DNA of 64,000 nucleotides from Acanthornis magna (taxonomy: Eukaryota; Chordata; Aves; Passeriformes; Acanthizidae), in NCBI GenBank assembly GCA_036785705.1, contig JAWUZG010000139.1:832938-896937 (forward strand), given 5' to 3'. The position numbers were made by a program, and so were the translations under genes. Shown here one piece after another: positions 2,636 through 44,512 of the stretch; position 1 is the first letter of the stretch; every line of letters begins with the position of its first letter. Under the pieces are notes generated by a model, which searched no databases, was not told where the DNA came from, and was given only the letters and a program-made list of their open reading frames with translations.

Positions 2636-3263
2636 ATTGGAGCAAACTGGAATCATTGCTGATACTCTGCACGTTTATTTTGATGTTCCAGATAAAGTAA
2701 GAGAGAATCCCCTACAGCATACATTCAAGCATGGGAGCACAGAAGGTGATAGCGATGCGCCAACAGTACCAGCTGTATCAGCCGAGGGGGTCCTGGAAAA
2801 GACAACGTTCCTCAAGTCAAACAATAACTTCCTGTTGATCTTCCTCTTCCTCTTCTTCTTCCTCTTCTTTTTCATTCTCTTTTTGTGCCTGCTCTCCTAC
2901 AACTGTTACAAAGGTTACTTGCCAGGGCAATGCTTGAAATTTCACTCTGTGCTGCTGCTTGGTAAGAAGAAAACAAAGTCATATTTTTCTGATTGTGAGA
3001 AAAGCATGAAAGAGATGCTGGTGGAGCAGGGCAGTGCCAGCCACCAGAGCGGGGAGCAGCCCAAGCCCGCGCACAGCCCCAGCTACGAGATGGAGCCTGA
3101 CTGCAGGAACAGCCAGCGGCAGGCTGGGGACTCGCGGGCATCCTGCCAGGCCAAGGACAAGCCCTTCGACTCAAGTGTGAACTCAAGGACGCTGACTCAA
3201 ATGTGGAGGGGGGGAATGAAGGACCTCATCGTCCCTCTCAGTGGCGGAATTGAGCTGTGGTAG
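2636..3263 (+). pseudogene. SEMA4D: SEMA4D-like last exon, Ig domain missing and tail frameshifted
   Basis: The frame encodes the end of a class-4 semaphorin: juxtamembrane stretch, one transmembrane helix (about 2827-2901) and a cytoplasmic tail. Tail motifs such as YNCYKGYLP, QCLKF, GKKK and DKPFD match my recollection of SEMA4D, a type I receptor-ligand that signals through plexin-B. Two defects are visible. First, a segment resembling the start of the Ig domain (PDKVRENPLQHTFKHGST, from about 2689) is followed within about 15 codons by the membrane-proximal LEKTTFLKS. About 100 or more codons of Ig domain and linker, including its cysteines, are therefore absent. The Cys normally before PDK is also missing. 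Second, after DKPFD at about 3170 the family-like tail KCELKDADS continues only in the next frame, which fits a 1-nt deletion; the present frame runs on to a TAG at 3261 instead. The copy is probably a decaying paralogue or gametologue. An assembly error could explain the frameshift but hardly the Ig loss. The 5' edge is uncertain. Confidence 0.75.
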
Positions 3264-7131: not shown

Positions 7132-7648
7132 TGCTGGGGAAGTGGACAGCAAGCAAGGGCACTGTTGGTGGTGAAGGGAGAGAGAGCTGCCCAGGAGTGT
7201 TGGTGTGGTGAGTTACATGGAGCTCTACTTGGGAATTGGGTTTTTTTGCTTGCTGTAAGATATGACTGCTTTCCTATTGTTTTCATAGAGTACACTCCAT
7301 TGTACTCTGTGTAGGCTCCCAGGAGTAGGTTTAGCTTTTCTATGGAGTGGTCAGTAATTGGGATTGAGTTGTCTGTGTCGAATCATTTGTGTTAGGGAAG
7401 AGCTGCTTTTCTAGGAATAGATCAGATGGGCCATTTGTAAGTGCTGCGGGACAGAGTTACTTAAAGCACTGGCTTTAAGTGTGAGGCTGGGATTGGATGC
7501 AGCCGCCGCCAAGGCTCCTGTGTCTGAGAAGGAGTTGAGAAAGCCAAGGGCTGCTCTCTGGCCCTCGTGACTCAGTGGCCAGGCTGCTCTGGGAGGCTTT
7601 GTGTGAATCTGCCAGCACAGCAGCGACAGATGTCCCCGAGGAGCTTGT

Positions 7649-8220
7649 GTGAGTGCAGGTGAGATCAGAGCTCTTGAGCAGCCTGGAGAGCCTGGGGATG
7701 TGGCCACGGAGCCGCCAGGATATCTGGTGACCTCGGGGTTCCTATGAGCAGAGGGAGCACTAAGATGTGCCCATGGCACCTGTGTAAGTGCCTGTGGCTA
7801 AAGGGCTCTTTTGCAGCCTGGAGAGCCTTGGCATGTGGCCATGAAGCCACAGTGCGTGTCTGTGACATCAGAGCGCTTTGGCAGCATGGAAAGGCCTGGA
7901 ATGGCTGCAGGGGCCAGAGGTGAGTGCCTGTGACATCAGAGCTGTCCAGCAGCAGCAGGGAGACGGAGGGAATGTCACAGGCCATGCCCTGTGAGTTGCT
8001 GTGACAGCGTGGCTCCTTAGCAGTGTGCAGATTGCCGGGATGTTACCCTGCAGGCCCTGGCATTGCCCTTGTTGTGTGTGTTGTTTAGGAAGATAGAGAG
8101 AGCCCTGGCATGTCCCCCTGGAAGGCCAGGGAGTGGCAGTTGCAAAAGAGCTCCTTAGCACTTAGAGACACGTGGGATGTCCCCATGGAGGCACTGTGAG
8201 AGCCCGTGACCTCAGAGGTC
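7649..8220 (+). repeat. Degenerate ~70-bp monomers, basal level of the array
   Basis: GTGAGT-like starts occur at about 7649, 7782, 7852, 7920, 7991, 8062, 8130 and 8199. The step is 68-71 bp, with one double step where a monomer is degenerate. Each monomer has the form GTGAGTGCCTGTGA, then CATCAGAGCTC, then TTTNGCAGCCTGGAGAG, then a GGGATGTCCCCATGGA-like end. Similar monomers make up blocks M, M' and the tail of each unit. Confidence 0.75.
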
Positions 8221-9482
8221 TTTGGAAGCTGAGAGAGCCCCGGGATGCCATGGGATGTGAGCATGGGGAGCCTGTGGGCAGGTGTGATGTCCCTGCTTGT
8301 GCTGGTGCATCCCCCCCTGCCCTTTTTTCAGGCTGCAGCATGATATGAGAAATGCTGCTGAGGCCTTGGCCTTGACGAATACAGCGGGGCTGAGGTGCTG
8401 TGGAGCTTCTGAGAAACGCTGTGTGCTGCCAGGAAGTGCTGTGTTCTAAGGTGCTCCTGCTTTTTTTGCCTGTTGAACAGACTTTGAAATTTGTTTTTGC
8501 CTGGATGGCATCACATTGGTGTTGTCCTGTGTTCAGGGAAAGCTGCCGATGAGAAGTGGGGCCATGCTGAAGGCTTGTTGTGACTAAAGGCCATGCCTTG
8601 GGGCCCTGTAAGCAGGGGTGCCAAAGGAGGCCCTGGCAGCTGTGCTGGGCCGCAGCAGCGGTGAGCAGCAAAGTCCCTGTGCGTGGGGCCTCTGCCAGCC
8701 GGCAGCTGTCCCGTTTGCTGCACTCGGGGGATCCGCGAAGGAGCACGGCTCCTGGGCCCCCGATCCTGCTGCTCCCCGAGGCCTCAGGCTTTGGCCGCTG
8801 AGAAGATGGCAAGGCACGTGAAAGGAGTATTTCAGTAGCTTGGAGGGGAATTTTGCCTCGTAGAGCCTCTTTGTGTGCTTGTGGGAGTGCAGGTGTGCAT
8901 GCGCTCTCTGCAATGTGGGAGAGGGGCTGCTCTGGTGGATTCAGAAGTGCTTTAGGTTTGTCCCTAAGTTAGGTCTCGAAGTTCCTGCAGTGCTAATGTA
9001 AGGGCTGTGTGGATCCTTTGCTGAGGTCTTGGGTTCCAGCTCAGTTCTAAGTGAAGCGTTGTGTAGTTGAAGTCCAGTTCAGTTGAAATGCTCTTAACTG
9101 CTGTTCCTGCCCTAAGCTGTTCATTTGAATTTGAGTTATCAAGTGAAGTGTTGCTCAAGCTGAAGTGCTCTTAAGGGAAGTGCTCTTGAGCCTTTGGGCC
9201 ATGTTCTTCTTATCCTGACCCTTTCTCTTCTTTAGAGACACAGCCTCACGCACACGGACAGACAGACAGAGATAATTTGGGTTTGATTTCATTTTGGATT
9301 GATTGACTCTGGATTTTTGTTTGTTGCTTTTCCTCACTGTGCTTTAAGCATGGTATAAGTAGTAGAGTGAAGCTTAGCAAGGAAGCTTGTCCTGCTGTGG
9401 CTTTTCCATGAAATCTTTCTTTCCCGATAGCTTTCCTATGATTCTTGGAGTGATGTAAAAGTGCCTGTGCCATCACATCTCT
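8177..9482 (+). repeat. Block A of unit 1
   Basis: Block A is an older relative of block A' (9781-10734). Both contain in order GAGAAATGCT, GCCTTGAGGAA or GCCTTGACGAA, GTGTGCTCCCAGGAAGTGCT-like sequence, a TTTTTGCCTG segment, a GACAGACAGACA run and a segment with CCCGATAGCTTTCCTATGATTC. Block A carries about 360 bp of GC-rich sequence (about 8521-8880) that A' lacks. Equivalent A blocks occur in all six complete units. Confidence 0.75.
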
Positions 9483-9780
9483 TTAGCAGCGTGGAGCCGC
9501 CTGGGATGTCAGCACCGAGGTGCTGGGAGTGAGTGCTTGTGACACCAGGGCTTCTGGGCAGCGTGTGGACTGCTGGCATGTGCCTATGGCTGTCCTGGGA
9601 CAGCCTGTGAGCTCAGTGCTCTTTTGAAAGCTGGATATCTCTGGCGTGTCCCCAGGGAGTTCCTGTGCCAAGATGTGACCTGCTGGCTCTTTGGCAGCCT
9701 GGAGATGGCTGGAGTGTGCCCAGGGGGCAAGTGTGAGTGTCAGGGACTTGCCAGCTCTTGAGGAGGATGGAGAGTGCAGA
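9483..9780 (+). repeat. Block M of unit 1
   Basis: About 300 bp made of four or five 70-bp monomers. It is very similar to M' at 10861, about 1374 bp downstream. M copies in long units start at 9483, 17783, 22620 and 27458. Confidence 0.8.
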
Positions 9781-10734
9781 GATGTCCCCATGGAGCCCCT
9801 GTGAGTGCCTGTGAGCTCAGAAGTCTATGGAGGCTTAAGACAGCTGTGATGAAATGGGATGTCAGCAGGGGGGCATGTAATGAAATTTGATCTCCCAGCT
9901 TGTGGTGGTGCATTCCTGTCTCCTCCCCTTTTTGAGCCCCACCATGATCTGAGAAATGCTCCTTAGGCATCGGCCTTGAGGAACTGCAGCTTGGCTGAGC
10001 AGCTCTTGAGCTTATGAGAAACACTGTGTGCTCCCAGGAAGTGCTGCTGTCTAACGTGGTCCTGTTTTGTTTTTTTTTATCGTAACAGCCTTGGAAAAAA
10101 ACAGCCTTGTTTTTGCCTGAATGGTAAACATTGCGTGCCAGTGTGCGTGTCCTCTCCGGAATGTGGCAGAGGGGCTGCTCTCCTGGATTCTGAAGTAGTT
10201 TAGAAGCGCAAGGAAGTTCTGCCTGTAAGTAAAATTACTATTGAGAGATGGTAAATCCTGTGGGGGTCCTTTTCTGAGGTGTTGGGCTTGAGTTCATTTC
10301 TATGTGAAGTCTTATTAACTTGAAATATGGTTAGGATTAAATGCTGTTAAGTGTTGTTCCTCTGCTAGGTGGTTAATTTGAAGGTAGAAATTTAAATGTT
10401 GCTCAAATGGACGTACTGTTAAGTGAAGTGCTCTTGAGCCTTTCAAGCGTGTTCATGTAATCCCGACACTTTCTCTCCTTTGGAGACACTCGCACACATA
10501 CACAGACACAGACAGACAGACATAGGTAATTTTGGTTTAATTTCATTTTGGATTGATTGGATTTATTTTGTTTCATTTCCTCGCTGTGCCTTAAGCATGG
10601 TGTAGGTAGTAGAGTGGAGCTTGGCAAGGAAGCTTGTCCTGCTGTGGCTTTGCTATGAAATCTTTCTTTCCCGATAGCTTTCCTATGATTCTTTGAGTGA
10701 TGTGCAAGTGCCTGTGCCATCACATCTCTTTAGT
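9781..10734 (+). repeat. Block A' of unit 1
   Basis: A shortened, diverged copy of block A, present only in the four long units. It has its own T8 run (about 10071) and a CACACATACACAGACACAGACAGACAGACA tract around 10493-10520, abbreviated here as a CA/GACA microsatellite. Short units lack it entirely. Confidence 0.75.
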
Positions 10735-10860
10735 GAGTGAGTGAAGCTTGGCAAGGAAGCTTGTCCTGCTGTGGCTTTTCCATGAAATCTTTCTTTCCCG
10801 ATAGCTTTCCTATGATTCTTGGAGTGATGTAAAAGTGCCTGTGCCATCACATCTCTTTAG
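10608..10860 (+). repeat. 127-bp direct duplication before M'
   Basis: The segment from AGCTTGGCAAGG at 10618 recurs at 10745, an offset of 127 bp. The second copy matches the end of block A (GCTTTTCCATGAAATC, GGAGTGATGTAAAAG) better than the first copy, which has GCTTTGCTATG and TTTGAGTGATGTGC. The second copy is therefore an A-type end placed directly before M'. The same arrangement is seen in units 3, 4 and 5. Confidence 0.85.
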
Positions 10861-11968
10861 CAGCGTGGAGCCGCCTGGGATGTCAGCACCGAGGTGCTGG
10901 GAGTGAGTGCCTGTGACACCAGGGCTTCTGGGCAGCGTGTGGACTCCTGGCATGTGCCTATGGCTGTCCTGGGACAGCCTGTGAGCTCAGTGTTCTTTTG
11001 AAAGCTGGATATCTCTGGCGTGTCCCCAGGGAGTTCCTGTGCCGAGATGTGACCTCCTGACTCTTTGGCAGCCTGGAGATGGCTGGAGTGTGCCCAGGGG
11101 GCAAGTGTGAGTGTCAGGGACTTGCCAGCTCTTGAGGAGGATGGAGGGTGCAGGGATGTCCCCATGGAGGCCCTGTGAGTGCCCGTGAGCTGGCGGCGCC
11201 TTAGCAGCGTGAGACTCGTGGGCTGTCAGCCCTGAGAGCCTGTTGAAGGCCGTGATGTGCGTGCAGAGAGGTTTGTCAAATGGGAGAGTCGTGGCATGTC
11301 CCTATGGAGCCGCTGGGGTTGTGTGTGCCCTCAGTGTTCTTGAGGAGCCTCGAGAGCCCTGGGATGGCCCCGTGGAAGCGCAGGGAGTGCCTGTGCCATA
11401 GCAGCGGTGCCTGATGAGATCAAAGGGCCCTGGGATGTCAGCTTGGAATGGCTGTGAGTGCCTGAGAGCACACGTCTGTCTCTCATGGCTGGAGAGGTGT
11501 GGCAGGTGCCCATGGTAGGTGTGTGAGTGCAGGTGAGCTCAGGGCTCTGCAGAAGGCTGTAGGCCTGTGGGCTGTGAGGCTGGAAGGCCTGGGAGTGCTT
11601 TGGAGCTGAGTGCTCTGTAGCAGTCGGGAGCCGCCTGGGAGGTTGTAGCAGGATGCTTTGGGCCGGCTGCTTTGCCTTGGAACGTGGTGCAGGCACTTGG
11701 AGCATGTGCTATTTGCAAATGTCTCCAGGTGTCTTTCAGAGGGTCAGCGTGTGTTGTTTTGGCCTTGAATTCTGCTGAAAGTCCTTCTGGCAAGGAAGCC
11801 TGCATGAAGGTGCTGCTAGTGAGGCAAAGATTTGGCAGCTGAGCTGCTGCCGGGAGTTGCAGGCGTCTGCCTGACAGTCAGTCCCTTGAGAGTGTCAATG
11901 TGCAGTCAGTCCCCTTTCCTAGGGGAGGTTTTTCTAGCGTGTTCCTCCTTGGAGTGTGTGAGGGCTCC

Positions 11969-14900
11969 TGCTGGGGAAGTGGACAGCAAGCAAGGGCACT
12001 GTTGGTGGTGAAGGGAGAGAGAGCTGCCCAGGAGTGTTGGTGTGGTGAGTTACATGGAGCTCTACTTGGGAATTGGGTTTTTTTGCTTGCTGTAAGATAT
12101 GACTGCTTTCCTATTGTTTTCATAGAGTACACTCCATTGTACTCTGTGTAGGCTCCCAGGAGTAGGTTTAGCTTTTCTATGGAGTGGTCAGTAATTGGGA
12201 TTGAGTTGTCTGTGTCAAATCATTTGTGTTAGGGAAGAGCTGCTTTTCTAGGAATAGATCAGATGGGCCATTTGTAAGTGCTGCGGGACAGAGTTACTTA
12301 AAGCACTGGCTTTAAGTGTGAGGCTGGGATTGGATGCAGCCGCCGCCAAGGCTCCTGTGTCTGAGAAGGAGTTGAGAAAGCCAAGGGCTGCTCTCTGGCC
12401 CTCGTGACTCAGTGGCCAGGCTGCTCTGGGAGGCTTTGTGTGAATCTGCCAGCACAGCAGCGACAGATGTCCCCGAGGAGCTTGTGTGAGTGCAGGTGAG
12501 ATCAGAGCTCTTGAGCAGCCTGGAGAGCCTGGGGATGTGGCCACGGAGCCGCCAGGATATCTGGTGACCTCGGGGTTCCTATGAGCAGAGGGAGCACTAA
12601 GATGTGCCCATGGCACCTGTGTAAGTGCCTGTGGCTAAAGGGCTCTTTTGCAGCCTGGAGAGCCTTGGCATGTGGCCATGAAGCCACAGTGCGTGTCTGT
12701 GACATCAGAGCGCTTTGGCAGCATGGAAAGGCCTGGAATGGCTGCAGGGGCCAGAGGTGAGTGCCTGTGACATCAGAGCTGCCCAGCAGCAGCAGGGAGA
12801 CGGAGGGAATGTCACAGGCCATGCCCTGTGAGTTGCTGTGACAGCGTGGCTCCTTAGCAGTGTGCAGATTGCCGGGATGTTACCCTGCAGGCCCTGGCAT
12901 TGCCCTTGTTGTGTGTGTTGTTTAGGAAGATAGAGAGAGCCCTGGCATGTCCCCCTGGAAGGCCAGGGAGTGGCAGTTGCAAAAGAGCTCCTTAGCACTT
13001 AGAGACACGTGGGATGTCCCCATGGAGGCACTGTGAGAGCCCGTGACCTCAGAGGTCTTTGGAAGCTGAGAGAGCCCCGGGATGCCATGGGATGTGAGCA
13101 TGGGGAGCCTGTGGGCAGGTGTGATGTCCCTGCTTGTGCTGGTGCATCCCCCCCTGCCCTTTTTTCAGGCTGCAGCATGATATGAGAAATGCTGCTGAGG
13201 CCTTGGCCTTGACGAATGCAGCGGGGCTGAGGTGCTGTGGAGCTTCTGAGAAACGCTGTGTGCTGCCAGGAAGTGCTGTGTTCTAAGGTGCTCCTGCTTT
13301 TTTTGCCTGTTGAACAGACTTTGAAATTTGTTTTTGCCTGGATGGCATCACATTGGTGTTGTCCCGTGTTCAGGGAAAGCTGCCGATGGGAAGTGGGGCC
13401 AGGCTGAAGGCTTGTTGTGACTAAAGGCCATGCCTCGGGGCCCTGTAAGCAGGGGTGCCAAAGGAGGCCCTGGCAGCTGTGCTGGGCCGCAGCAGCGGTG
13501 AGCAGCAAAGTCCCTGTGCGTGGGGCCTCTGCCAGCCGGCAGCTGTCCCGTTTGCTGCACTCGGGGGATCCGCGAAGGAGCACGGCTCCTGGGCCCCCGA
13601 TCCTGCTGCTCCCCGAGGCCTCAGGCTTTGGCCGCTGAGAAGATGGCAAGGCCCGTGAAAGGAGTATTTCAGTAGCTTGGAGGGGAATTTTGCCTCGTAG
13701 AGCCTCTTTGTGTGCTTGTGGGAGTGCAGGTGTGCATGCGCTCTCTGCAATGTGGGAGAGGGGCTGCTCTGGTGGATTCAGAAGTGCTTTAGGTTTGTCC
13801 CTAAGTTAGGTCTCGAAGTTCCTGCAGTGCTAATGTAAGGGCTGTGTGGATCCTTTGCTGAGGTCTTGGGTTCCAGCTCAGTTCTAAGTGAAGCGTTGTG
13901 TAGTTGAAGTCCAGTTCAGTTGAAATGCCCTGAACTGCTGTTCCTGCCCTAAGCTGTTCATTTGAATTTGAGTTATCAAGTGAAGTGTTGCTCAAGCTGA
14001 AGTGCTCTTAAGGGAAGTGCTCTTGAGCCTTTGGGCCATGTTCTTCTTATCCTGACCCTTTCTCTTCTTTAGAGACACAGCCTCACGCACACGGACAGAC
14101 AGACAGAGATAATTTGGGTTTGATTTCATTTTGGATTGATTGACTCTGGATTTTTGTTTGTTGCTTTTCCTCACTGTGCTTTAAGCATGGTATAAGTAGT
14201 AGAGTGAAGCTTAGCAAGGAAGCTTGTCCTGCTGTGGCTTTTCCATGAAATCTTTCTTTCCCGATAGCTTTCCTATGATTCTTGGAGTGATGTAAAAGTG
14301 CCTGTGCCATCACATCTCTTTAGCAGCGTGGAGCCACCTGGGATGTCAGCACCGAGGTGCTGGGAGTGAGTGCCTGTGACACCAGGGCTTCTGGGCAGCG
14401 TGTGGACTCCTGGCATGTGCCTATGGCTGTCCTGGGACAGCCTGTGAGCTCAGTGTTCTTTTGAAAGCTGGATATCTCTGGCGTGTCCCCAGGGAGTTCC
14501 TGTGCCAAGATGTGACCTCCTGACTCTTTGGCAGCCTGGAGATGGCTGGAGTGTGCCCAGGGGGCAAGTGTGAGTGTCAGGGACTTGCCAGCTCTTGAGG
14601 AGGATGGAGGGTGCAGGGATGTCCCCATGGAGGCCCTGTGAGTGCCCGTGAGCTGGCGGCGCCTTAGCAGCGTGAGACTCGTGGGCTGTCAGCCCTGAGA
14701 GCCTGTTGAAGGCCGTGATGTGCGTGCAGAGAGGTTTGTCAAATGGGAGAGTCGTGGCATGTCCCTATGGAGCCGCTGGGGTTGTGTGTGCCCTCAGTGT
14801 TCTTGAGGAGCCTCGAGAGCCCTGGGATGGCCCCGTGGAAGCGCAGGGAGTGCCTGTGCCATAGCAGCGGTGCCTGATGAGATCAAAGGGCCCTGGGATG

Positions 14901-15431
14901 TCAGCTTGGAATGGCTGTGAGTGCCTGAGAGCACACGTCTGTCTCTCATGGCTGGAGAGGTGTGGCAGGTGCCCATGGTAGGTGTGTGAGTGCAGGTGAG
15001 CTCAGGGCTCTGCAGAAGGCTGTAGGCCTGTGGGCTGTGAGGCTGGAAGGCCTGGGAGTGCTTTGGAGCTGAGTGCTCTGTAGCAGTCGGGAGCCGCCTG
15101 GGAGGTTGTAGCAGGATGCTTTGGGCCGGCTGCTTTGCCTTGGAACGTGGTGCAGGCACTTGGAGCATGTGCTATTTGCAAATGTCTCCAGGTGTCTTTC
15201 AGAGGGCCAGCGTGTGTTGTTTTGGCCTTGAATTCTGCTGAAAGTCCTTCTGGCAAGGAAGCCTGCATGAAGGTGCTGCTAGTGAGGCAAAGATTTGGCA
15301 GCTGAGCTGCTGCCGGGAGTTGCAGGCGTCTGCCTGACAGTCAGTCCCTTGAGAGTGTCAATGTGCAGTCAGTCCCCTTTCCTAGGGGAGGTTTTTCTAG
15401 CGTGTTCCTCCTTGGAGTGTGTGAGGGCTCC
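11969..15431 (+). repeat. Array unit 2, short form (3463 bp)
   Basis: This unit has leader, monomers, block A, a single M-type block from 14320 and the tail. It is exactly 1374 bp shorter than unit 1. The M block carries M'-type variants (for example GTGCAGGGATG near 14612 and AGGCCCTGTG after it), so A is joined directly to M' and the interval M plus A' is absent. Confidence 0.92.
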
Positions 15432-18400
15432 TGCTGGGGAAGTGGACAGCAAGCAAGGGCACTGTTGGTGGTGAAGGGAGAGAGAGCTGCCCAGGAGTGT
15501 TGGTGTGGTGAGTTACATGGAGCTCTACTTGGGAATTGGGTTTTTTTGCTTGCTGTAAGATATGACTGCTTTCCTATTGTTTTCATAGAGTGCACTCCAT
15601 TGTACTCTGTGTAGGCTCCCAGGAGTAGGTTTAGCTTTTCTATGGAGTGGTCAGTAATTGGGATTGAGTTGTCTGTGTCAAATCATTTGTGTTAGGGAAG
15701 ACCTGCTTTTCTAGGAATAGATCAGATGGGCCATTTGTAAGTGCTGCGGGACAGAGTTACTTAAAGCACTGGCTTTAAGTGTGAGGCTGGGATTGGATGC
15801 AGCCGCCGCCAAGGCTCCTGTGTCTGAGAAGGAGTTGAGAAAGCCAAGGGCTGCTCTCTGGCCCTCGTGACTCAGTGGCCAGGCTGCTCTGGGAGGCTTT
15901 GTGTGAATCTGCCAGCACAGCAGCGACAGATGTCCCCGAGGAGCTTGTGTGAGTGCAGGTGAGATCAGAGCTCTTGAGCAGCCTGGAGAGCCTGGGGATG
16001 TGGCCACGGAGCCGCCAGGATATCTGGTGACCTCGGGGTTCCTATGAGCAGAGGGAGCACTAAGATGTGCCCATGGCACCTGTGTAAGTGCCTGTGGCTA
16101 AAGGGCTCTTTTGCAGCCTGGAGAGCCTTGGCATGTGGCCATGAAGCCACAGTGCGTGTCTGTGACATCAGAGCGCTTTGGCAGCATGGAAAGGCCTGGA
16201 ATGGCTGCAGGGGCCAGAGGTGAGTGCCTGTGACATCAGAGCTGTCCAGCAGCAGCAGGGAGACGGAGGGAATGTCACAGGCCATGCCCTGTGAGTTGCT
16301 GTGACAGCGTGGCTCCTTAGCAGTGTGCAGATTGCCGGGATGTTACCCTGCAGGCCCTGGCATTGCCCTTGTTGTGTGTGTTGTTTAGGAAGATAGAGAG
16401 AGCCCTGGCATGTCCCCCTGGAAGGCCAGGGAGTGGCAGTTGCAAAAGAGCTCCTTAGCACTTAGAGACATGTGGGATGTCCCCATGGAGGCACTGTGAG
16501 AGCCCGTGACCTCAGAGGTCTTTGGAAGCTGAGAGAGCCCCGGGATGCCATGGGATGTGAGCATGGGGAGCCTGTGGGCAGGTGTGATGTCCCTGCTTGT
16601 GCTGGTGCATCCCCCCCTGCCCTTTTTTCAGGCTGCAGCATGATATGAGAAATGCTGCTGAGGCCTTGGCCTTGACGAATGCAGCGGGGCTGAGGTGCTG
16701 TGGAGCTTCTGAGAAACGCTGTGTGCTGCCAGGAAGTGCTGTGTTCTAAGGTGCTCCTGCTTTTTTTGCCTGTTGAACAGACTTTGAAATTTGTTTTTGC
16801 CTGGATGGCATCACATTGGTGTTGTCCCGTGTTCAGGGAAAGCTGCCGATGAGAAGTGGGGCCAGGCTGAAGGCTTGTTGTGACTTAAGGCCATGCCTCG
16901 GGGCCCTGTAAGCAGGGGTGCCAAAGGAGGCCCTGGCAGCTGTGCTGGGCCGCAGCAGCGGTGAGCAGCAAAGTCCCTGTGCGTGGGGCCTCTGCCAGCC
17001 GGCAGCTGTCCCGTTTGCTGCACTCGGGGGATCCGCGAAGGAGCACGGCTCCTGGGCCCCCGATCCTGCTGCTCCCCGAGGCCTCAGTCTTTGGCCGCTG
17101 AGAAGATGGCAAGGCCCGTGAAAGGAGTATTTCAGTAGCTTGGAGGGGAATTTTGCCTCGTAGAGCCTCTTTGTGTGCTTGTGGGAGTGCAGGTGTGCAT
17201 GCGCTCTCTGCAATGTGGGAGAGGGGCTGCTCTGGTGGATTCAGAAGTGCTTTAGGTTTGTCCCTAAGTTAGGTCTCGAAGTTCCTGCAGTGCTAATGTA
17301 AGGGCTGTGTGGATCCTTTGCTGAGGTCTTGGGTTCCAGCTCAGTTCTAAGTGAAGCGTTGTGTAGTTGAAGTCCAGTTCAGCTGAAATGCTCTTAACTG
17401 CTGTTCCTGCCCTAAGCTGTTCATTTGAATTTGAGTTATCAAGTGAAGTGTTGCTCAAGCTGAAGTGCTCTTAAGGGAAGTGCTCTTGAGCCTTTGGGCC
17501 ATGTTCTTCTTATCCTGACCCTTTCTCTTCTTTAGAGACACAGCCTCACGCACACGGACAGACAGACAGAGATAATTTGGGTTTGATTTCATTTTGGATT
17601 GATTGACTCTGGATTTTTGTTTGTTGCTTTTCCTCACTGTGCTTTAAGCATGGTATAAGTAGTAGAGTGAAGCTTAGCAAGGAAGCTTGTCCTGCTGTGG
17701 CTTTTCCATGAAATCTTTCTTTCCCGATAGCTTTCCTATGATTCTTGGAGTGATGTAAAAGTGCCTGTGCCATCACATCTCTTTAGCAGCGTGGAGCCGC
17801 CTGGGATGTCAGCACCGAGGTGCTGGGAGTGAGTGCTTGTGACACCAGGGCTTCTGGGCAGCGTGTGGACTCCTGGCATGTGCCTATGGCTGTCCTGGGA
17901 CAGCCTGTGAGCTCAGTGCTCTTTTGAAAGCTGGATATCTCTGGCGTGTCCCCAGGGAGTTCCTGTGCCAAGATGTGACCTGCTGGCTCTTTGGCAGCCT
18001 GGAGATGGCTGGAGTGTGCCCAGGGGGCAAGTGTGAGTGTCAGGGACTTGCCAGCTCTTGAGGAGGATGGAGAGTGCAGAGATGTCCCCATGGAGCCCCT
18101 GTGAGTGCCTGTGAGCTCAGAAGTCTATGGAGGCTTAAGACAGCTGTGATGAAATGGGATGTCAGCAGGGGGGCATGTAATGAAATTTGATCTCCCAGCT
18201 TGTGGTGGTGCATTCCTGTCTCCTCCCCTTTTTGAGCCCCACCATGATCTGAGAAATGCTCCTTAGGCATCGGCCTTGAGGAACTGCAGCTTGGCTGAGC
18301 AGCTCTTGAGCTTATGAGAAACACTGTGTGCTCCCAGGAAGTGCTGCTGTCTAACGTGGTCCTGTTTTGTTTTTTTTTATCGTAACAGCCTTGGAAAAAA

Positions 18401-25105: not shown

Positions 25106-28100
25106 TGCTGGGGAAGTGGACAGCAAGCAAGGGCACTGTTGGTGGTGAAGGGAGAGAGAGCTGCCCAGGAGTGTTGGTGTGGTGAGTTACATGGAGCTCT
25201 ACTTGGGAATTGGGTTTTTTTGCTTGCTGTAAGATATGACTGCTTTCCTATTGTTTTCATAGAGTGCACTCCATTGTACTCTGTGTAGGCTCCCAGGAGT
25301 AGGTTTAGCTTTTCTATGGAGTGGTCAGTAATTGGGATTGAGTTGTCTGTGTCGAATCATTTGTGTTAGGGAAGAGCTGCTTTTCTAGGAATAGATCAGA
25401 TGGGCCATTTGTAAGTGCTGCGGGACAGAGTTACTTAAAGCACTGGCTTTAAGTGTGAGGCTGGGATTGGATGCAGCCGCCGCCAAGGCTCCTGTGTCTG
25501 AGAAGGAGTTGAGAAAGCCAAGGGCTGCTCTCTGGCCCTCGTGACTCAGTGGCCAGGCTGCTCTGGGAGGCTTTGTGTGAATCTGCCAGCACAGCAGCGA
25601 CAGATGTCCCCGAGGAGCTTGTGTGAGTGCAGGTGAGATCAGAGCTCTTGAGCAGCCTGGAGAGCCTGGGGATGTGGCCACGGAGCCGCCAGGATATCTG
25701 GTGACCTCGGGGTTCCTATGAGCAGAGGGAGCACTAAGATGTGCCCATGGCACCTGTGTAAGTGCCTGTGGCTAAAGGGCTCTTTTGCAGCCTGGAGAGC
25801 CTTGGCATGTGGCCATGAAGCCACAGTGCGTGTCTGTGACATCAGAGCGCTTTGGCAGCATGGAAAGGCCTGGAATGGCTGCAGGGGCCAGAGGTGAGTG
25901 CCTGTGACATCAGAGCTGTCCAGCAGCAGCAGGGAGACGGAGGGAATGTCACAGGCCATGCCCTGTGAGTTGCTGTGACAGCGTGGCTCCTTATCAGCGT
26001 GCAGATTGCCGGGATGTTACCCTGCAGGCCCTGGCATTGCCCTTGTTGTGTGTGTTGTTTAGGAAGATAGAGAGAGCCCTGGCATGTCCCCCTGGAAGGC
26101 CAGGGAGTGGCAGTTGCAAAAGAGCTCCTTAGCACTTAGAGACACGTGGGATGTCCCCATGGAGGCACTGTGAGAGCCCGTGACCTCAGAGGTCTTTGGA
26201 AGCTGAGAGAGCCCCGGGATGCCATGGGATGTGAGCATGGGGAGCCTGTGGGCAGGTGTGATGTCCCTGCTTGTGCTGGTGCATCCCCCCCTGCCCTTTT
26301 TTCAGGCTGCAGCATGATATGAGAAATGCTGCTGAGGCCTTGGCCTTGACGAAGGCAGCGGGGCTGAGGTGCTGTGGAGCTTCTGAGAAACGCTGTGTGC
26401 TGCCAGGAAGTGCTGTGTTCTAAGGTGCTCCTGCTTTTTTTGCCTGTTGAACAGACTTTGAAATTTGGTTTTGCCTGGATGGCATCACATTGGTGTTGTC
26501 CCGTGTTCAGGGAAAGCTGCTGATGAGAAGTGGGGCCATGCTGAAGGCTTGTTGTGACTAAAGGCCATGCCTTGGGGCCCTGTAAGCAGGGGTGCCAAAG
26601 GAGGCCCTGGCAGCTGTGCTGGGCCGCAGCAGCGGTGAGCAGCAAAGTCCCTGTGCGTGGGGCCTCTGCCAGCCGGCAGCTGTCCCGTTTGCTGCACTCG
26701 GGGGATCCGCGAAGGAGCACGGCTCCTGGGCCCCCGATCCTGCCGCTCCCCGAGGCCTCAGGCTTTGGCCGCTGAGAAGATGGCAAGGCACGTGAAAGGA
26801 GTATTTCAGTAGCTTGGAGGGGAATTTTGCATCCTAGAGCCTCTTTGTGTGCTTGTGGGAGTGCAGGTGTGCATGCGCTCTCTGCAATGTGGGAGAGGGG
26901 CTGCTCTGGTGGATTCAGAAGTGCTTTAGGTTTGTCCCTAAGTTAGGTCTCGAAGTTCCTGCAGTGCTATGGTAAGGGCTGTGTGGATCCTTTGCTGAGG
27001 GCTTGGGTTCCAGCTCAGTTCTAAGTGAAGCGTTGTGTAGTTGAAGTCCAGTTCAGTTGAAATGCCCTGAACTGCTGTTCCTGCCCTAAGTTGTTGATTT
27101 GAATTTGAGTTATCAAGTGAAATGTTGCTCAAGCTGAAGTGCTCTTAAGGGAAGTGCTCTTGAGCCTTTGGGCCATGTTCTTCTTATCCTGACCCTTTCT
27201 CTTCTTTAGAGACACAGCCTCACACACACGGACAGACAGACAGAGATAATTTGGGTTTGATTTCATTTTGGATTGATTGACTCTGGATTTTTGTTTGTTG
27301 CTTTTCCTCACTGTGCTTTGAGCATGGTATAAGTAGTAGAGTGAAGCTTGGCAAGGAAGCTTGTCCTGCTGTGGCTTTGCTATGAAATCTTTCTTTCCTA
27401 ATAGCTTTCCCGTGATTCTCTTGAGTGATGTGCAAGTGCCTGTGCCATCACATCTCTTTAGCAGCGTGGAGCCGCCTGGGATGTCAGCACCGAGGTGCTG
27501 GGAGTGAGTGCTTGTGACACCAGGGCTTCTGGGCAGCGTGTGGACTCCTGGCGTGTGCCTATGGCTGTCCTGGGACAGCCTGTGAGCTCAGTGCTCTTTT
27601 GAAAGCTGGATATCTCTGGCGTGTCCCCAGGGAGTTCCTGTGCCAAGATGTGACCTGCTGGCTCTTTGGCAGCCTGGAGATGGCTGGAGTGTGCCCAGGG
27701 GGCAAGTGTGAGTGTCAGGGACTTGCCAGCTCTTGAGGAGGATGGAGAGTGCAGAGATGTCCCCATGGAGCCCCTGTGAGTGCCTGTGAGCTCAGAAGTC
27801 TATGGAGGCTTAAGACAGCTGTGATGAAATGGGATGTCAGCAGGGGGGCATGTAATGAAATTTGATCTCCCAGCTTGTGGTGGTGCATTCCTGTCTCCTC
27901 CCCTTTTTGAGCCCCACCATGATCTGAGAAATGCTCCTTAGGCATCGGCCTTGAGGAACTGCAGCTTGGCTGAGCAGCTCTTGAGCTTATGAGAAACACT
28001 GTGTGCTCCCAGGAAGTGCTGCTGTCTAACGTGGTCCTGTTTTGTTTTTTTTTATCGTAACAGCCTTGGAAAAAAACAGCCTTGTTTTTGCCTGAATGGT

Positions 28101-29930
28101 AAACATTGCGTGCCAGTGTGCGTGTCCTCTCCGGAATGTGGCAGAGGGGCTGCTCTCCTGGATTCTGAAGTAGTTTAGAAGCGCAAGGAAGTTCTGCCTG
28201 TAAGTAAAATTACTATTGAGAGATGGTAAATCCTGTGGGGGTCCTTTTCTGAGGTGTTGGGCTTGAGTTCATTTCTATGTGAAGTCTTATTAACTTGAAA
28301 TATGGTTAGGATTAAATGCTGTTAAGTGTTGTTCCTCTGCTAGGTGGTTAATTTGAAGGTAGAAATTTAAATGTTGCTCAAATGGACGTACTGTTAAGTG
28401 AAGTGCTCTTGAGCCTTTCAAGCGTGTTCATGTAATCCCGACACTTTCTCTCCTTTGGAGACACTCGCACACATACACAGACACAGACAGACAGACATAG
28501 GTAATTTTGGTTTAATTTCATTTTGGATTGATTGGATTTATTTTGTTTCATTTCCTCGCTGTGCCTTAAGCATGGTGTAGGTAGTAGAGTGGAGCTTGGC
28601 AAGGAAGCTTGTCCTGCTGTGGCTTTGCTATGAAATCTTTCTTTCCCGATAGCTTTCCTATGATTCTTTGAGTGATGTGCGAGTGCCTGTGCCATCACAT
28701 CTCTTTAGTGAGTGAGTGAAGCTTGGCAAGGAAGCTTGTCGTGCTGTGGCTTTTCCATGAAATCTTTCTTTCCCGATAGCTTTCCTATGATTCTTGGAGT
28801 GATGTAAAAGTGCCTGTGCCATCACATCTCTTTAGCAGCGTGGAGCCACCTGGGATGTCAGCACCGAGGTGCTGGGAGTGAGTGCCTGTGACACCAGGGC
28901 TTCTGGGCAGCGTGCGGACTGCTGGCGTGTTCCTATGGCTGTCCTGGGACGGCCTGTGAGCTCAGTGTTCTTTTGAAAGCTGGATAGCTGTGGCGTGTCC
29001 CCAGGGAGTTCCTGTGCCAAGATGTGACCTGCTGGCTCTTTGGCAGCCTGGAGATGGCTGGAGTGTGCCCAGGGGGCAAGTGTGAGTGTCAGGGACTTGC
29101 CAGCTCTTGAGGAGGATGGAGGGTGCAGGGATGTCCCCATGGAGGCCCTGTGAGTGCCTGTGAGCTGGCGGCACCTTAGCAGCGTGAGACTCGTGGGCTG
29201 TCAGCCCTGAGAGCCTGTTGAAGGCCGTGATGTGCGTGCAGAGAGGTTTGTCAAATGGGAGAGTCGTGGCATGTCCCTATGGAGCCGCTGGGGTTGTGTG
29301 TGCCCTCAGTGTTCTTGAGGAGCCTCGAGAGCCCTGGGATGGCCCCATGGAAGTGCAGGGAGTGCCTGTGCCATAGCAGCGGTGCCTGATGAGATCAAAG
29401 GGCCCTGGGATGTCAGCTTGGAATGGCTGTGAGTGCCTGAGAGCACACGTCTGTCTCTCATGGCCGGAGAGCTGTGGCAGGTGCCCATGGTAGGTGTGTG
29501 AGTGCAGGTGAGCTCAGGGCTCTGCAGAAGGCTGTAGGCCTGTGGGCTGTGAGGCTGGAAGGCCTGGGAGTGCTTTGGAGCTGAGTGCTCTGTAGCAGTC
29601 GGGAGCCGCCTGGGAGGTTGTAGCAGGATGCTTTGGGCCGGCTGCTTTGCCTTGGAACGTGGTGCAGGCACTTGGAGCATGTGCTATTTGCAAATGTCTC
29701 CAGGTGTCTTTCAGAGGGCCAGCGTGTGTTGTTTTGGCCTTGAATTCTGCTGAAAGTCCTTCTGGCAAGGAAGCCTGCTAGTGAGGCAAAGATTTGGCAG
29801 CTGAGCTGCTGCCGGGAGTTGCAGGCGTCTGCCTGACAGTCAGTCCCTTGAGAGTGTCAATGTGCAGTCAGTCCCCTTTCCTAGGGGAGGTTTTTCTAGC
29901 GTGTTCCTCCTTGGAGTGTGTGAGGGCTCC
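25106..29930 (+). repeat. Array unit 5, long form (4825 bp)
   Basis: Closest sibling of unit 4. It carries the same variant set but not the 1-bp deletion, and it has a 13-bp deletion near 29776 (between AAGCCTGC and TAGTGAGG). M starts at 27458 and M' at 28832. Confidence 0.92.
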
Positions 29931-32900
29931 TGCTGGGGAAGTGGACAGCAAGCAAGGGCACTGTTGGTGGTGAAGGGAGAGAGAGCTGCCCAGGAGTGTT
30001 GGTGTGGTGAGTTACATGGAGCTCTACTTGGGAATTGGGTTTTTTTGCTTGCTGTAAGATATGACTGCTTTCCTATTGTTTTCATAGAATGCACTCCATT
30101 GTACTCTGTGTAGGCTCCCAGGAGTAGGTTTAGCTTTTCTATGGAGTGGTCAGTAATTGGGATTGAGTTGTCTGTGTCGAATCATTTGTGTTAGGGAAGA
30201 CCTGCTTTTCTAGGAATAGATCAGATGGGCCATTTGTAAGTGCTGCGGGACAGAGTTACTTAAAGCACTGGCTTTAAGTGTGAGGCTGGGATTGGATGCA
30301 GCCGCCGCCAAGGCTCCTGTGTCTGAGAAGGAGTTGAGAAAGCCAAGGGCTGCTCTCTGGCCCTCGTGACTCAGTGGCCAGGCTGCTCTGGGAGGCTTTG
30401 TGTGAATCTGCCAGCACAGCAGCGACAGATGTCCCCGAGGAGCTTGTGTGAGTGCAGGTGAGATCAGAGCTCTTGAGCAGCCTGGAGAGCCTGGGGATGT
30501 GGCCACGGAGCCGCCAGGATATCTGGTGACCTCGGGGTTCCTATGAGCAGAGGGAGCACTAAGATGTGCCCATGGCACCTGTGTAAGTGCCTGTGGCTAA
30601 AGGGCTCTTTTGCAGCCTGGAGAGCCTTGGCATGTGGCCATGAAGCCACAGTGCGTGTCTGTGACATCAGAGCGCTTTGGCAGCATGGAAAGGCCTGGAA
30701 TGGCTGCAGGGGCCAGAGATGAGTGCCTGTGACATCAGAGCTGTCCAGCAGCAGCAGGGAGACGGAGGGAATGTCACAGGCCATGCCCTGTGAGTTGCTG
30801 TGACAGCGTGGCTCCTTAGCAGTGTGCAGATTGCCGGGATGTTACCCTGCAGGCCCTGGCATTGCCCTTGTTGTGTGTGTTGTTTAGGAAGATAGAGAGA
30901 GCCCTGGCATGTCCCCCTGGAAGGCCAGGGAGTGGCAGTTGCAAAAGAGCTCCTTAGCACTTAGAGACACGTGGGATGTCCCCATGGAGGCACTGTGAGA
31001 GCCCGTGACCTCAGAGGTCTTTGGAAGCTGAGAGAGCCCCAGGATGCCATGGGATGTGAGCATGGGGAGCCTGTGGGCAGGTGTGATGTCCCTGCTTGTG
31101 CTGGTGCATTCCCCCCTGCCCTTTTTTCAGGCTGCAGCATGATATGAGAAATGCTGCTGAGGCCTTGGCCTTGACGAAGGCAGCGGGGCTGAGGTGCTGT
31201 GGAGCTTCTGAGAAACACTGTGTGCTGCCAGGAAGTGCTGTGTTCTAAGGTGCTCCTGCTTTTTTTGCCTGTTGAACAGACTTTGAAATTTGGTTTTGCC
31301 TGGATGGCATCACATTGGTGTTGTCCTGTGTTCAGGGAAAGCTGCCGATGAGAAGTGGGGCCATGCTGAAGGCTTGTTGTGACTAAAGGCCATGCCTTGG
31401 GGCCCTGTAAGCAGGGGTGCCAAAGGAGGCCCTGGCAGCTGTGCTGGGCCGCAGCAGCGGTGAGCAGCAAAGTCCCTGTGCGTGGGGCCTCTGCCAGCCG
31501 GCAGCTGTCCCGTTTGCTGCACTCGGGGGATCCGCGAAGGAGCACGGCTCCTGGGCCCCCGATCCTGCTGCTCCCCGAGGCCTCAGGCTTTGGCCGCTGA
31601 GAAGATGGCAAGGCACGTGAAAGGAGTATTTCAGTAGCTTGGAGGGGAATTTTGCCTCGTAGAGCCTCTTTGTGTGCTTGTGGGAGTGCAGGTGTGCATG
31701 CGCTCTCTGCAATGTGGGAGAGGGGCTGCTCTGGTGGATTCAGAAGTGCTTTAGGTTTGTCCCTAAGTTAGGTCTCGAAGTTCCTGCAGTGCTAATGTAA
31801 GGGCTGTGTGGATCCTTTGCTGAGGTCTTGGGTTCCAGCTCAGTTCTAAGTGAAGCGTTGTGTAGTTGAAGTCCAGTTCAGTTGAAATGCTCTTAACTGC
31901 TGTTCCTGCCCTAAGCTGTTCATTTGAATTTGAGTTATCAAGTGAAGTGTTGCTCAAGCTGAAGTGCTCTTAAGGGAAGTGCTCTTGAGCCTTTGGGCCA
32001 TGTTCTTCTTATCCTGACCCTTTCTCTTCTTTAGAGACACAGCCTCACGCACACGGACAGACAGACAGAGATAATTTGGGTTTGATTTCATTTTGGATTG
32101 ATTGACTCTGGATTTTTGTTTGTTGCTTTTCCTCACTGTGCTTTAAGCATGGTATAAGTAGTAGAGTGAAGCTTAGCAAGGAAGCTTGTCCTGCTGTGGC
32201 TTTTCCATGAAATCTTTCTTTCCCGATAGCTTTCCTATGATTCTTGGAGTGATGTAAAAGTGCCTGTGCCATCACATCTCTTTAGCAGCGTGGAGCCGCC
32301 TGGGATGTCAGCACCGAGGTGCTGGGAGTGAGTGCCTGTGACACCAGGGCTTCTGGGCAGCGTGTGGACTCCTGGCATGTGCCTATGGCTGTCCTGGGAC
32401 AGCCTGTGAGCTCAGTGTTCTTTTGAAAGCTGGATATCTCTGGCGTGTCCCCAGGGAGTTCCTGTGCCGAGATGTGACCTCCTGACTCTTTGGCAGCCTG
32501 GAGATGGCTGGAGTGTGCCCAGGGGGCAAGTGTGAGTGTCAGGGACTTGCCAGCTCTTGAGGAGGATGGAGGGTGCAGGGATGTCCCCATGGAGGCCCTG
32601 TGAGTGGCCGTGAGCTGGCGGCACCTTAGCAGCGTGAGACTCGTGGGCTGTCAGCCCTGAGAGCCTGTTGAAGGCCGTGATGTGCGTGCAGAGAGGTTTG
32701 TCAAATGAGAGAGTCGTGGCATGTCCCTATGGAGCCGCTGGGGTTGTGTGTGCCCTCAGTGTTCTTGAGGAGCCTCGAGAGCCCTGGGACGGCCCCGTGG
32801 AAGCGCAGGGAGTGCCTGTGACATAGCAGCGGTGCCTGATGAGATCAGAGGGCCCTGGGATGTCAGCTTGGAATGGCTGTGAGTGCCTGAGAGCACACGT

Positions 32901-33393
32901 CTGTCTCTCATGGCTGGAGAGGTGTGGCAGGTGCCCATGGTAGGTGTGTGAGTGCAGGTGAGCTCAGGGCTCTGCAGAAGGCTGTAGGCCTGTGGGCTGT
33001 GATGCTGGAAGGCCTGGGAGTGCTTTGGAGCTGAGTGCTCTGTAGCAGTCGGGAGCCGCCTGGGAGGTTGTAGCAGGATGCTTTGGGCCGGCTGCTTTGC
33101 CTTGGAACGTGGTGCAGGCACTTGGAGCATGTGCTATTTGCAAATGTCTCCAGGTGTCTTTCAGAGGGCCAGCGTGTGTTGTTTTGGCCTTGAATTCTGC
33201 TGAAAGTCCTTCTGGCAAGGAAGCCTGCATGAAGGTGCTGCTAGTGAGGCAAAGATTTGGCAGCTGAGCTGCTGCCGGGAGTTGCCGGCGTCTGCCTGAC
33301 AGTCAGTCCCTTGAGAGTGTCAATGTGCAGTCAGTCCCCTTTCCTAGGGGAGGTTTTTCTAGCGTGTTCCTCCTTGGAGTGTGTGAGGGCTCC
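29931..33393 (+). repeat. Array unit 6, short form (3463 bp)
   Basis: Second short unit, with a single M-type block from 32282. Over the M region it carries the same variants as M' of unit 1 (for example TGCCGAGATG), so its M block is of M' type. It has the same length and junction position as unit 2. Confidence 0.92.
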
Positions 33394-33931
33394 TGCTGGG
33401 GAAGTGGACAGCAAGCAAGGGCACTGTTGGTGGTGAAGGGAGAGAGAGCTGCCCAGGAGTGTTGGTGTGGTGAGTTACATGGAGCTCTACTTGGGAATTG
33501 GGTTTTTTTGCTTGCTGTAAGATATGACTGCTTTCCTATTGTTTTCATAGAGTGCACTCCATTGTACTCTGTGTAGGCTCCCAGGAGTAGGTTTAGCTTT
33601 TCTATGGAGTGGTCAGTAATTGGGATTGAGTTGTCTGTGTCGAATCATTTGTGTTAGGGAAGAGCTGCTTTTCTAGGAATAGATCAGATGGGCCATTTGT
33701 AAGTGCTGCGGGACAGAGTTACTTAAAGCACTGGCTTTAAGTGTGAGGCTGGGATTGGATGCAGCCGCCGCCAAGGCTCCTGTGTCTGAGAAGGAGTTGA
33801 GAAAGCCAAGGGCTGCTCTCTGGCCCTCGTGACTCAGTGGCCAGGCTGCTCTGGGAGGCTTTGTGTGAATCTGCCAGCACAGCAGCGACAGATGTCCCCG
33901 AGGAGCTTGTGTGAGTGCAGGTGAGATCAGA
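33394..33931 (+). repeat. Array unit 7, partial (538 bp)
   Basis: Only the leader and the first monomer are present. Similarity stops after GGTGAGATCAGA at 33931, where ATATAAAATC replaces the GCTCTTGAGC of full units. Confidence 0.93.

Positions 33932-44470: not shown

Positions 44471-44471
<1 letters not shown>
38691..44471. other. AT-rich non-coding DNA
   Basis: No gene was recognised over about 5.8 kb. Minor features are GTTT repeats near 39416, a 15-bp TGTGGTTTATTAGC motif repeated about three times at 42754-42791, a short CA run at 42598, and a 19-A run at 43926-43944. Confidence 0.4.

Positions 44472-44511
<40 letters not shown>
44472..44511 (+). repeat. Poly-T run (40 T)
   Basis: Forty consecutive T follow TGAAAATGATG, then TGGTTGGGG and a second T-rich run. 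It could be the A-tail of a minus-strand retroposed copy, but no element body was recognised next to it. The length may be unreliable. Confidence 0.9.

Positions 44512-44512
<1 letters not shown>

What the first reader, a model, noticed from the sequence alone, without database searches (positions are those of the whole stretch)
7132..33931. Three-level higher-order tandem array next to a SEMA4D-like gene
About 70-bp monomers build 1.3-kb duplicated blocks, which build 3.46-4.84-kb units, repeated seven times with few differences. I do not recognise the family. The recurring unit boundary (TGCTGGGGAAG) and constant spacing are read directly. Large, locus-specific avian arrays can be transcribed and regulatory, as with the chicken Z-linked MHM repeat; that analogy is inference only.
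Basis: partly seen in the sequence, partly recalled or inferred. Interest (0 to 1): 0.8.

Follow-up and report, generated by a model that had tools for sequence, protein, structure and literature searches.

The report
Tandem array inside a giant SEMA4D amplicon
The repeat array is real, but it is only the inner layer of a roughly 0.43-million-base block carrying a changed copy of the SEMA4D gene, which this bird-like genome holds in several hundred nearly identical copies, perhaps a tenth of its assembled DNA.

Summary
The array is there as described: six full units (3463 or 4825-4837 bp) plus a 538-bp partial one at 7132-33931, 98.6-99.9% identical, built in part from ~70-bp monomers. The reading as a locus-specific satellite is wrong. 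In the window's own 1.48-Gb assembly the array and its left flank recur at 99-100% in 40 of 40 scored places each, and sampled points up to 800 kb upstream are colinear with other contigs. An exact 30-mer at the end of the window's SEMA4D copy occurs 233 times (reversed control 0). A second SEMA4D subtype adds at least 117 copies. Copies typically lie about 428 kb apart (79 of 110 spacings): roughly 150 Mb, about 10% of the assembly, if haplotypes are not double counted. An ordinary SEMA4D on a 9.9-Mb contig is ~10% diverged, and similarity there stops exactly where the array begins. The array is thus a variable-length tandem layer of the amplicon lineage. Its chromosome is unproven: no second cpeb1 (against a songbird germline-restricted chromosome), no extra CHD1-type match (against W). 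I favour a Z-linked or other heterochromatic block. No function of the array was shown.

The parts
835..975 (+). PSI-domain exon of the amplicon's SEMA4D copy
   Evidence: tblastn with recalled human SEMA4D, 59.6% over 47 aa, E 3.6e-13
2688..3258 (+). Last coding exon of the SEMA4D copy (transmembrane and cytoplasmic part); most of the Ig-coding stretch of recalled human SEMA4D is not found in it
   Evidence: tblastn 56.8% over 95 aa, E 4.9e-25, plus a weak 18-aa match (E 0.73) next to the lost Ig part; sequence
3155..3190 (+). One base fewer than the human-like reading frame near the C terminus; the frame changes after KDKPFD. The 30-mer spanning it is present 233 times in the genome
   Evidence: 13 of 13 copies compared carry it
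7131..7132 (.). 5' junction of the array; similarity with the ordinary SEMA4D locus stops here
   Evidence: the same junction in 16 of 20 fetched regions, the other 4 being all array
7132..11968 (+). Unit 1, long form, 4837 bp
7652..8293 (+). Monomer cluster 1 of unit 1 (10 profile matches)
9377..10750 (+). 1374-bp block present in long units and absent from short units (borders approximate)
   Evidence: alignment gap
9460..9867 (+). Monomer cluster 2 of unit 1 (6 matches)
10612..10860 (+). 127-bp tandem duplication, 2 copies
10707..11643 (+). Monomer cluster 3 of unit 1 (13 matches, the first one partial)
11969..15431 (+). Unit 2, short form, 3463 bp
15432..20268 (+). Unit 3, long form, 4837 bp
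20269..25105 (+). Unit 4, long form, 4837 bp
25106..29930 (+). Unit 5, long form, 4825 bp; 5 mismatches in 4824 to unit 4
29931..33393 (+). Unit 6, short form, 3463 bp
33394..33931 (+). Unit 7, first 538 bp only
41465..48901 (.). 3' flank stretch of which an inverted copy (98.3-99.0% over two pieces) lies about 60 kb upstream of the window start
   Evidence: L031 against the window
49087..52086 (+). 3' flank stretch repeated in direct orientation 849 kb upstream on the same contig, 99.6%
   Evidence: L043 against the window

Best explanation
The array is a higher-order tandem repeat nested inside a very large amplicon. A segment around SEMA4D was duplicated long ago (now ~10% diverged from the ordinary locus) and rearranged: most of the Ig-coding part was lost and the 3' flank was replaced by new sequence at window 7131, where the array grew. 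That ~0.43-Mb block was then copied several hundred times and kept about 98-99.9% identical. Within each copy the array lengthens and shortens by whole 3.46- or 4.84-kb units. Shown: array anatomy, recurrence of array and flanks, copy numbers, spacing, no array within the 137 bp read beyond the junction at the ordinary locus, different array lengths between copies. Inferred: the copying and homogenising process (unequal crossing over and gene conversion), that the array has no role of its own, and that the block sits in one heterochromatic region, most likely on the Z chromosome, from which SEMA4D comes in birds (recalled).
For: Array piece: 40 of 40 scored places (of 202 first-look candidates) match at ~100%, on 24 contigs. 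Left flank: all of window 1-7131 in 12 of 20 fetched regions at 99.78-99.89%, part of it up to the region edge in 4, array only in 4. 3532-bp flank probe: 40 of 40 scored (of 2150 candidates), full length, 99-100%, on 39 contigs. Colinearity of C139 with C115 at -10, -60 and -200 kb and with C345 at -400, -600 and -800 kb: 98.6-99.9%, 6 of 6 points. Right flank: window 57472-61467 on C115 at 99.65%, window 47813-50815 on C345 at 98.6%. Exact 30-mer: 233 places, reversed control 0. SEMA4D exon: 150 of 150 scored places (of 1364 candidates) match, 148 read as amplicon copies. Adjacent spacings 380-500 kb in 79 of 110, median 428 kb, on partial lists. All 28 array hits on contigs up to number 279 lie downstream, on the same strand, of a window-type SEMA4D end. 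Array length varies: copy 2 on C115 about 8.3 kb shorter, C115 copy 1 still array 38 kb past its start, C186 hits reach 60 kb past the SEMA4D end. Ordinary SEMA4D on C147: 89.94% over 1203 bp; similarity ends at window 7130 and the next 137 bp score 15 against the first 600 bp of the array (shuffle maximum 26) and 21 against a whole unit (shuffle maximum 31).
Against: Haplotypes may be counted twice: ordinary SEMA4D appears at two places with equal score (C147, C1439). Assembly errors in such repeats cannot be excluded without reads. Only 137 bp beyond the junction at the ordinary locus were read, so an array further away is possible. Two copies on C115 are only 97.96% alike 200 kb upstream, and 31 of 110 spacings fall outside 380-500 kb. 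Two of 11 window-type exon hits on contigs up to 279 have no 30-mer near them (C8, C75). Z linkage is untested: the DM-domain search did not complete.
Confidence: 0.72

Rival explanations
1. The amplicon lies on the W chromosome: a W-linked SEMA4D copy, degenerate and amplified in palindromes and tandem blocks like Y or W ampliconic genes.
For: ~10% divergence from the ordinary gene, loss of the Ig part, a C-terminal frame change, an inverted copy of a flank stretch nearby and hundreds of near-identical copies fit a non-recombining chromosome.
Against: The CHD1-type C-terminal family gives 2 matches among 6 scored candidates, which I read as CHD1 and CHD2 (recalled), with no extra W copy. The ordinary SEMA4D has a second, equally scoring place (C1439), as a ZZ male with a leftover haplotig would. 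The flank pieces measured have GC 0.39; repeat content was not measured.
Confidence: 0.15
2. The amplicon is on a germline-restricted or supernumerary chromosome, sequenced because gonad DNA was used.
For: Passages of PMC6884545 describe A-chromosome genes amplified on the zebra finch GRC up to 308 copies per gene and very similar to the originals, the pattern seen here.
Against: CPEB1 N-terminal family: 5 of 7 scored candidates match and all 5 lie on one contig, so no second cpeb1 was found; passages of PMC10387091 place a cpeb1 paralog on both nightingale GRCs and the zebra finch GRC, diverged before the oscine/suboscine split. Tissue and species are unknown. A GRC without cpeb1 or another B chromosome stays possible.
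Confidence: 0.17
3. The array itself is a regulatory element (MHM- or DXZ4-like: transcribed, or a chromatin anchor), and selection on it drives the amplification.
For: Constant position behind window-type SEMA4D (28 of 28 hits); strand asymmetry (GC skew 0.13-0.28 in every 1-kb bin of the array).
Against: No RNA family match. CpG observed/expected 0.27, like the left flank (0.26; right flank 0.16), and no four-run G-quadruplex motif in the array. No expression data.
Confidence: 0.08
4. Assembly artefact or unpurged haplotypes.
For: The assembly is large for a bird (1.48 Gb, 1515 contigs; usual size recalled); C1439 looks like a haplotig of C147; the window ends at its contig's end.
Against: Two haplotypes cannot make 233 exact copies. 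Copies differ in array length, in private variants (26 singleton columns of 42 variable) and in order and orientation along multi-Mb contigs.
Confidence: 0.05

Closest known systems
Chicken Z amplicon (tandem testis-gene amplicons on distal Zq; recalled, no call)
   Same: Large tandem amplicon blocks carrying changed gene copies in a bird genome, plausibly on Z.
   Different: Different source gene, a unit of ~0.43 Mb instead of tens of kb (recalled), and a total that looks several times larger.
Amplified genes of songbird germline-restricted chromosomes (PMC6884545 and PMC10387091, passages read)
   Same: A-chromosome genes copied up to hundreds of times, near-identical, many fragmentary.
   Different: No second cpeb1 found here; long assembled contigs; tissue unknown.
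Chicken MHM repeat (recalled)
   Same: Kilobase-scale tandem unit near a Z-linked gene in birds.
   Different: MHM is one locus; here the array was found on 24 contigs among only 40 scored hits. Methylation and transcription untested.
Mammalian macrosatellites such as DXZ4 (title and start of abstract of PMC6985041 seen; rest recalled)
   Same: Kilobase tandem units with copy-number variation.
   Different: DXZ4 is a single X-linked locus with CTCF sites; CTCF sites not tested here.
Enlarged Z chromosome of woodpeckers (PMC5230766 and PMC12478393, passages read)
   Different: Species here unknown; no chromosome assignment.

Membership tests
Higher-order tandem repeat (macrosatellite) | Kilobase units head to tail, each made of diverged smaller repeats, units far more alike than monomers | tested here: met
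   units 98.6-99.9% alike, 29 diverged monomers in one long unit (part of the unit is not monomeric)
Locus-specific macrosatellite (MHM or DXZ4 kind) | Restricted to one locus | tested here: not met
Locus-specific macrosatellite (MHM or DXZ4 kind) | Sex- or allele-specific methylation and transcription | not testable with these tools
   No methylation or RNA data held
Ampliconic gene block | Large segment with a gene, many copies, near-identical | tested here: met
Ampliconic gene block | Copies carry expressed genes | not testable with these tools
   Frame of one Sema exon open in 148 of 148 amplicon hits; exon divergence 13/315 against intron 103/882, Fisher p 5e-5; but Ig part lost and C-terminal frame changed; no RNA
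Songbird germline-restricted chromosome | GRC paralog of cpeb1 present | tested here: not met
   all 5 exon hits on one contig
Songbird germline-restricted chromosome | Absent from somatic DNA | not testable with these tools
   Tissue unknown, no reads
W-linked amplicon | Assembly contains a W chromosome (extra CHD1 copy) | tested here: inconclusive
   2 matches only; one exon, one of them with a stop inside; W could be missing
Transposable element | Defined ends with target-site duplications, insertion at unrelated sites | tested here: not met
   The 5' flank of the array is shared in all 16 fetched loci that reach its edge; similarity extends at least 800 kb upstream at sampled points. Target-site duplications were not searched for
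Z amplicon | Linkage to Z-chromosome genes | not tested
   DM-domain search did not complete

The most novel reading that the evidence does not exclude
A bird carries a ~150-Mb block made of about 350 or more copies of a ~0.43-Mb amplicon that encodes a changed, possibly still constrained SEMA4D-like protein lacking most of its Ig domain, a giant ampliconic system (perhaps a sex-chromosome or supernumerary drive conflict, as with Slx/Sly or Stellate, recalled) with an internal higher-order array that varies from copy to copy.
Probability: 0.2. Interest if true: 0.93.

Novelty: new variant of a known kind. Interest (0 to 1): 0.74.

Why it matters
Bird genomes are thought of as small and repeat-poor. 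A single amplicon family holding around a tenth of an assembly, with a changed copy of a signalling gene in each unit, would be, as far as I recall, among the largest gene-bearing amplifications known in a vertebrate. It would make gene-amplification conflicts, concerted evolution over hundreds of kilobases and chromosome enlargement directly testable. My paper searches (open-access PMC papers only) showed no listing whose title or abstract start describes a SEMA4D amplicon; that is not proof that none is in print.

Tried and rejected
Transposon: at first the repeated 5' flank suggested an LTR-type element with an internal array; rejected when the shared sequence was found to run through the SEMA4D exon and beyond and no long repeat joins the two flanks inside the window. 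Downstream neighbour: recalled SECISBP2 C terminus gave no credible match (best E 3.8 in the window, 0.68 in L029 and L030). Rfam and tRNA scans empty. Sex-linked satellite by literature: 0 papers hold SEMA4D, Z-linked and bird together. Species: not determined; that it is a bird rests on the finding's own wording and on my reading, not on a test.

Not achieved: probe window:60001-63500 (and many repeats), the Ig-segment search, the genome-wide count of array units and the DM-domain family search did not complete by the server. A probe with window:33700-36700 was sent once, not answered, and not repeated.

The split into 117 (86 or 133 aa frames), 30 (104 aa), 1 (95 aa) and 2 (138 aa) was counted by eye, twice. 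The position lists in the scripts were typed and are partial: one search left out part of the hits (mostly on contigs above number 279) and the hits after C197, and labels as B every hit without a listed 30-mer near it, including two of the 104-aa kind; one search used the 28 of 40 hits on contigs up to number 279, with the second-type positions known for those contigs.
Full report
Observation. The array exists at the stated coordinates. Seven unit starts (7132, 11969, 15432, 20269, 25106, 29931, 33394) define six complete units of 4837, 3463, 4837, 4837, 4825 and 3463 bp and a last piece of about 538 bp. Full units are 98.6-99.9% identical; units 4 and 5 differ by 5 substitutions in 4824 bp. 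The long form is the short form plus a 1374-bp duplicated block, and holds a 127-bp tandem duplication. A profile of ~70-bp monomers matches 29 times in one long unit, in three clusters with non-monomeric stretches between them. Shared variants change partners along the unit (for example the pattern 000110 in one stretch and 001110 in another), as exchange between units would leave. Both ends are abrupt. No Rfam family and no tRNA is found.

Neighbour gene. The gene on the left is a SEMA4D copy on the + strand: two Sema-domain exons in the 10 kb before the window (L029; 98 aa against PDB 1olz, E 8.8e-44), a PSI exon at 835-975 and the transmembrane and cytoplasmic exon at about 2688-3258. Against recalled human SEMA4D most of the Ig-coding stretch is not found and one base is absent near the end, so that the frame changes after KDKPFD. 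All 13 copies compared carry that 30-mer. Exons further upstream were not looked for.

The array is not alone. In the window's own assembly (1.48 Gb, 1515 contigs; the window is the end of contig C139, 896,937 bp) a 1001-bp array probe matched at about 100% in 40 of 40 scored places, of 202 first-look candidates, on 24 contigs. I fetched 20 stretches upstream of such hits: 12 hold the whole left flank, window 1-7131, at 99.78-99.89%, 4 hold part of it up to the edge of the stretch, and 4 are array only. The 5' junction is the same in all 16 that reach it. Beyond the window start the 12 full ones have 2.2-2.3 kb more; 11 of 11 compared with one of them (L012) are 99.4-99.96% alike there. Among 13 copies of the flank (window included) 42 columns vary, 26 of them in one copy only. 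A 3532-bp flank probe found 40 of 40 scored places (of 2150 candidates), full length at 99-100%, on 39 contigs.

Size and number of the amplicon. Sampled points of C139 and C115 are colinear at 10, 60 and 200 kb upstream of the window (99.73, 99.64 and 99.93%), and of C139 and C345 at 400, 600 and 800 kb (99.94, 99.89 and 98.61%). The right flank was found on C115 (window 57472-61467, 99.65%) and C345 (window 47813-50815, 98.6%). Window 49087-52086 recurs 849 kb upstream on C139 in direct orientation, and window 41465-48901 recurs about 60 kb upstream in inverted orientation. Two copies on one contig (C115) are 97.96% alike 200 kb upstream, so copies are not all of one age. A human SEMA4D piece found 150 of 150 scored places (of 1364 candidates): 148 that I read as amplicon copies of one exon, with open frames, and 2 places of an ordinary gene. 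An exact 30-mer at the frame change occurs 233 times, control 0. By frame length splits into 30 window-type hits, 117 of a second type, 1 other and the 2 ordinary ones. On contigs up to number 279, 9 of 11 window-type hits have the 30-mer about 7.2-7.4 kb away; two (C8, C75) do not. Where both lists were compared by script (partial lists) 6 hits lay within 10 kb of a 30-mer, all of window type, so the two sets add up to at least 350. Put together along contigs, 79 of 110 adjacent spacings are 380-500 kb, median 428 kb; of the rest some are about twice that and a few much shorter (for example 135 and 190 kb). At 428 kb per copy 350 copies make about 150 Mb, 10% of the assembly.

Array and amplicon. 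On contigs numbered up to 279, where the list is complete, 28 of 28 array hits lie downstream, on the same strand, of a window-type SEMA4D end, 27 within about 60 kb and one at 142 kb. Seventeen of them are on contigs with a listed second-type copy; the nearest such copy is 388 kb away. Array length differs between copies: about 8.3 kb shorter than the window's in copy 2 of C115, still array 38 kb past the start in its copy 1 (positions), and on C186 hits 5 to 60 kb past the SEMA4D end, if each is one continuous array. So whole units come and go.

Ordinary locus. C147 (9.88 Mb) carries a SEMA4D whose Sema exons are nearer to human. It is 89.94% identical to the amplicon over 1203 bp, with 103 of 882 intron and 13 of 315 exon positions different (Fisher p 5e-5); dN 0.038, dS 0.059 over 105 codons, on only 9 and 4 changes. 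With the human sequence as outgroup, 7 of 9 amino-acid changes fall on the amplicon side (my reading). This suggests a gene that was constrained for part of its amplicon history and is now relaxed; part of the low exon divergence comes from the ordinary gene's own constraint, and it does not prove function. Downstream of the gene similarity runs to window 7130 (91.4% over 502 bp and 84.4% over 1449 bp, with a break at 4989-5681) and stops; the next 137 bp match neither the array nor the window's right flank beyond shuffled levels. The array therefore arose, or arrived, at a breakpoint in the amplicon lineage; an array further along at the ordinary locus was not excluded.

Which chromosome. Not settled. 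A passerine germline-restricted chromosome should bring a second cpeb1 (passages of PMC10387091); the CPEB1 N-terminal family gives 5 exon hits, all on one contig. A W chromosome should bring a second CHD1; the family gives two places only, which I read as CHD1 and CHD2 (recalled), one with a stop inside. The equal-scoring second place of ordinary SEMA4D (C1439) looks like a haplotig, as expected in a ZZ male if SEMA4D is Z-linked (recalled from chicken). These tests are single genes in one assembly. I therefore rank a Z-linked or otherwise heterochromatic block first, germline-restricted or supernumerary second, W third. Passages of PMC5230766 and PMC12478393 describe woodpeckers with enlarged Z chromosomes; that is context, not identification.

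How it works. The best-supported account is mechanical: unequal exchange and gene conversion within and between ~0.43-Mb blocks multiply the blocks and keep them alike, and the same process at unit level makes the array grow and shrink. The array looks like a passenger: CpG depletion is like the left flank (0.27 against 0.26; right flank 0.16) and no RNA family is found. One stop-to-stop frame of 268 aa on the - strand is open in 5 of 6 units and broken in unit 3; it and 7 other frames of the array have no Pfam match. Such frames are expected in G+C-rich near-identical copies, but I did not test coding potential further. Strand asymmetry (more G and T on the + strand) is compatible with transcription from SEMA4D but also with the composition of the founding monomer. 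If anything is selected it is more likely the SEMA4D-like gene than the array; that is inference.

Verdict. Observation confirmed; interpretation partly supported.

Noticed in passing
window 4989-5681: This stretch, with T-rich and G-rich runs, is not matched at the ordinary SEMA4D locus, which has about 1.37 kb of other sequence there. It may be a mobile-element insertion in one or both lineages.
   Followed up: partly
window 8165-8968 (- strand) and the same place in other units: Stop-to-stop frame of 268 aa open in 5 of 6 units, broken in unit 3; no Pfam match.
   Followed up: partly
G000 C57:3773000-3911000: Array hits at 3776408 and 3910733 and array-only sequence at 3901300-3911200 behind a single window-type SEMA4D end: either an array of more than 130 kb or a second array without its gene.
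   Followed up: no
G000 C1439:12326-12565: Second place of the ordinary SEMA4D exon with the same score as C147, probably a haplotig.
   Followed up: no
G000 C45:14591098 and C93:12723635: Amplicon SEMA4D copies on contigs longer than 12 Mb: candidate junctions between amplicon and ordinary chromosome.
   Followed up: no
window 5796-5813: Poly-G run whose length varies among the copies.
   Followed up: no
window 34978-35265: Open frame of 96 aa with a pyrimidine-rich acceptor-like stretch at its start, no Pfam match.
   Followed up: partly
window 37170-37319: AGAA microsatellite of 37 units, 76% matches.
   Followed up: no
G000 C372:878707-878892: CHD1-type C-terminal match with one stop inside; may be an exon end or a decayed copy, which matters for the sex of the sample.
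   Followed up: no
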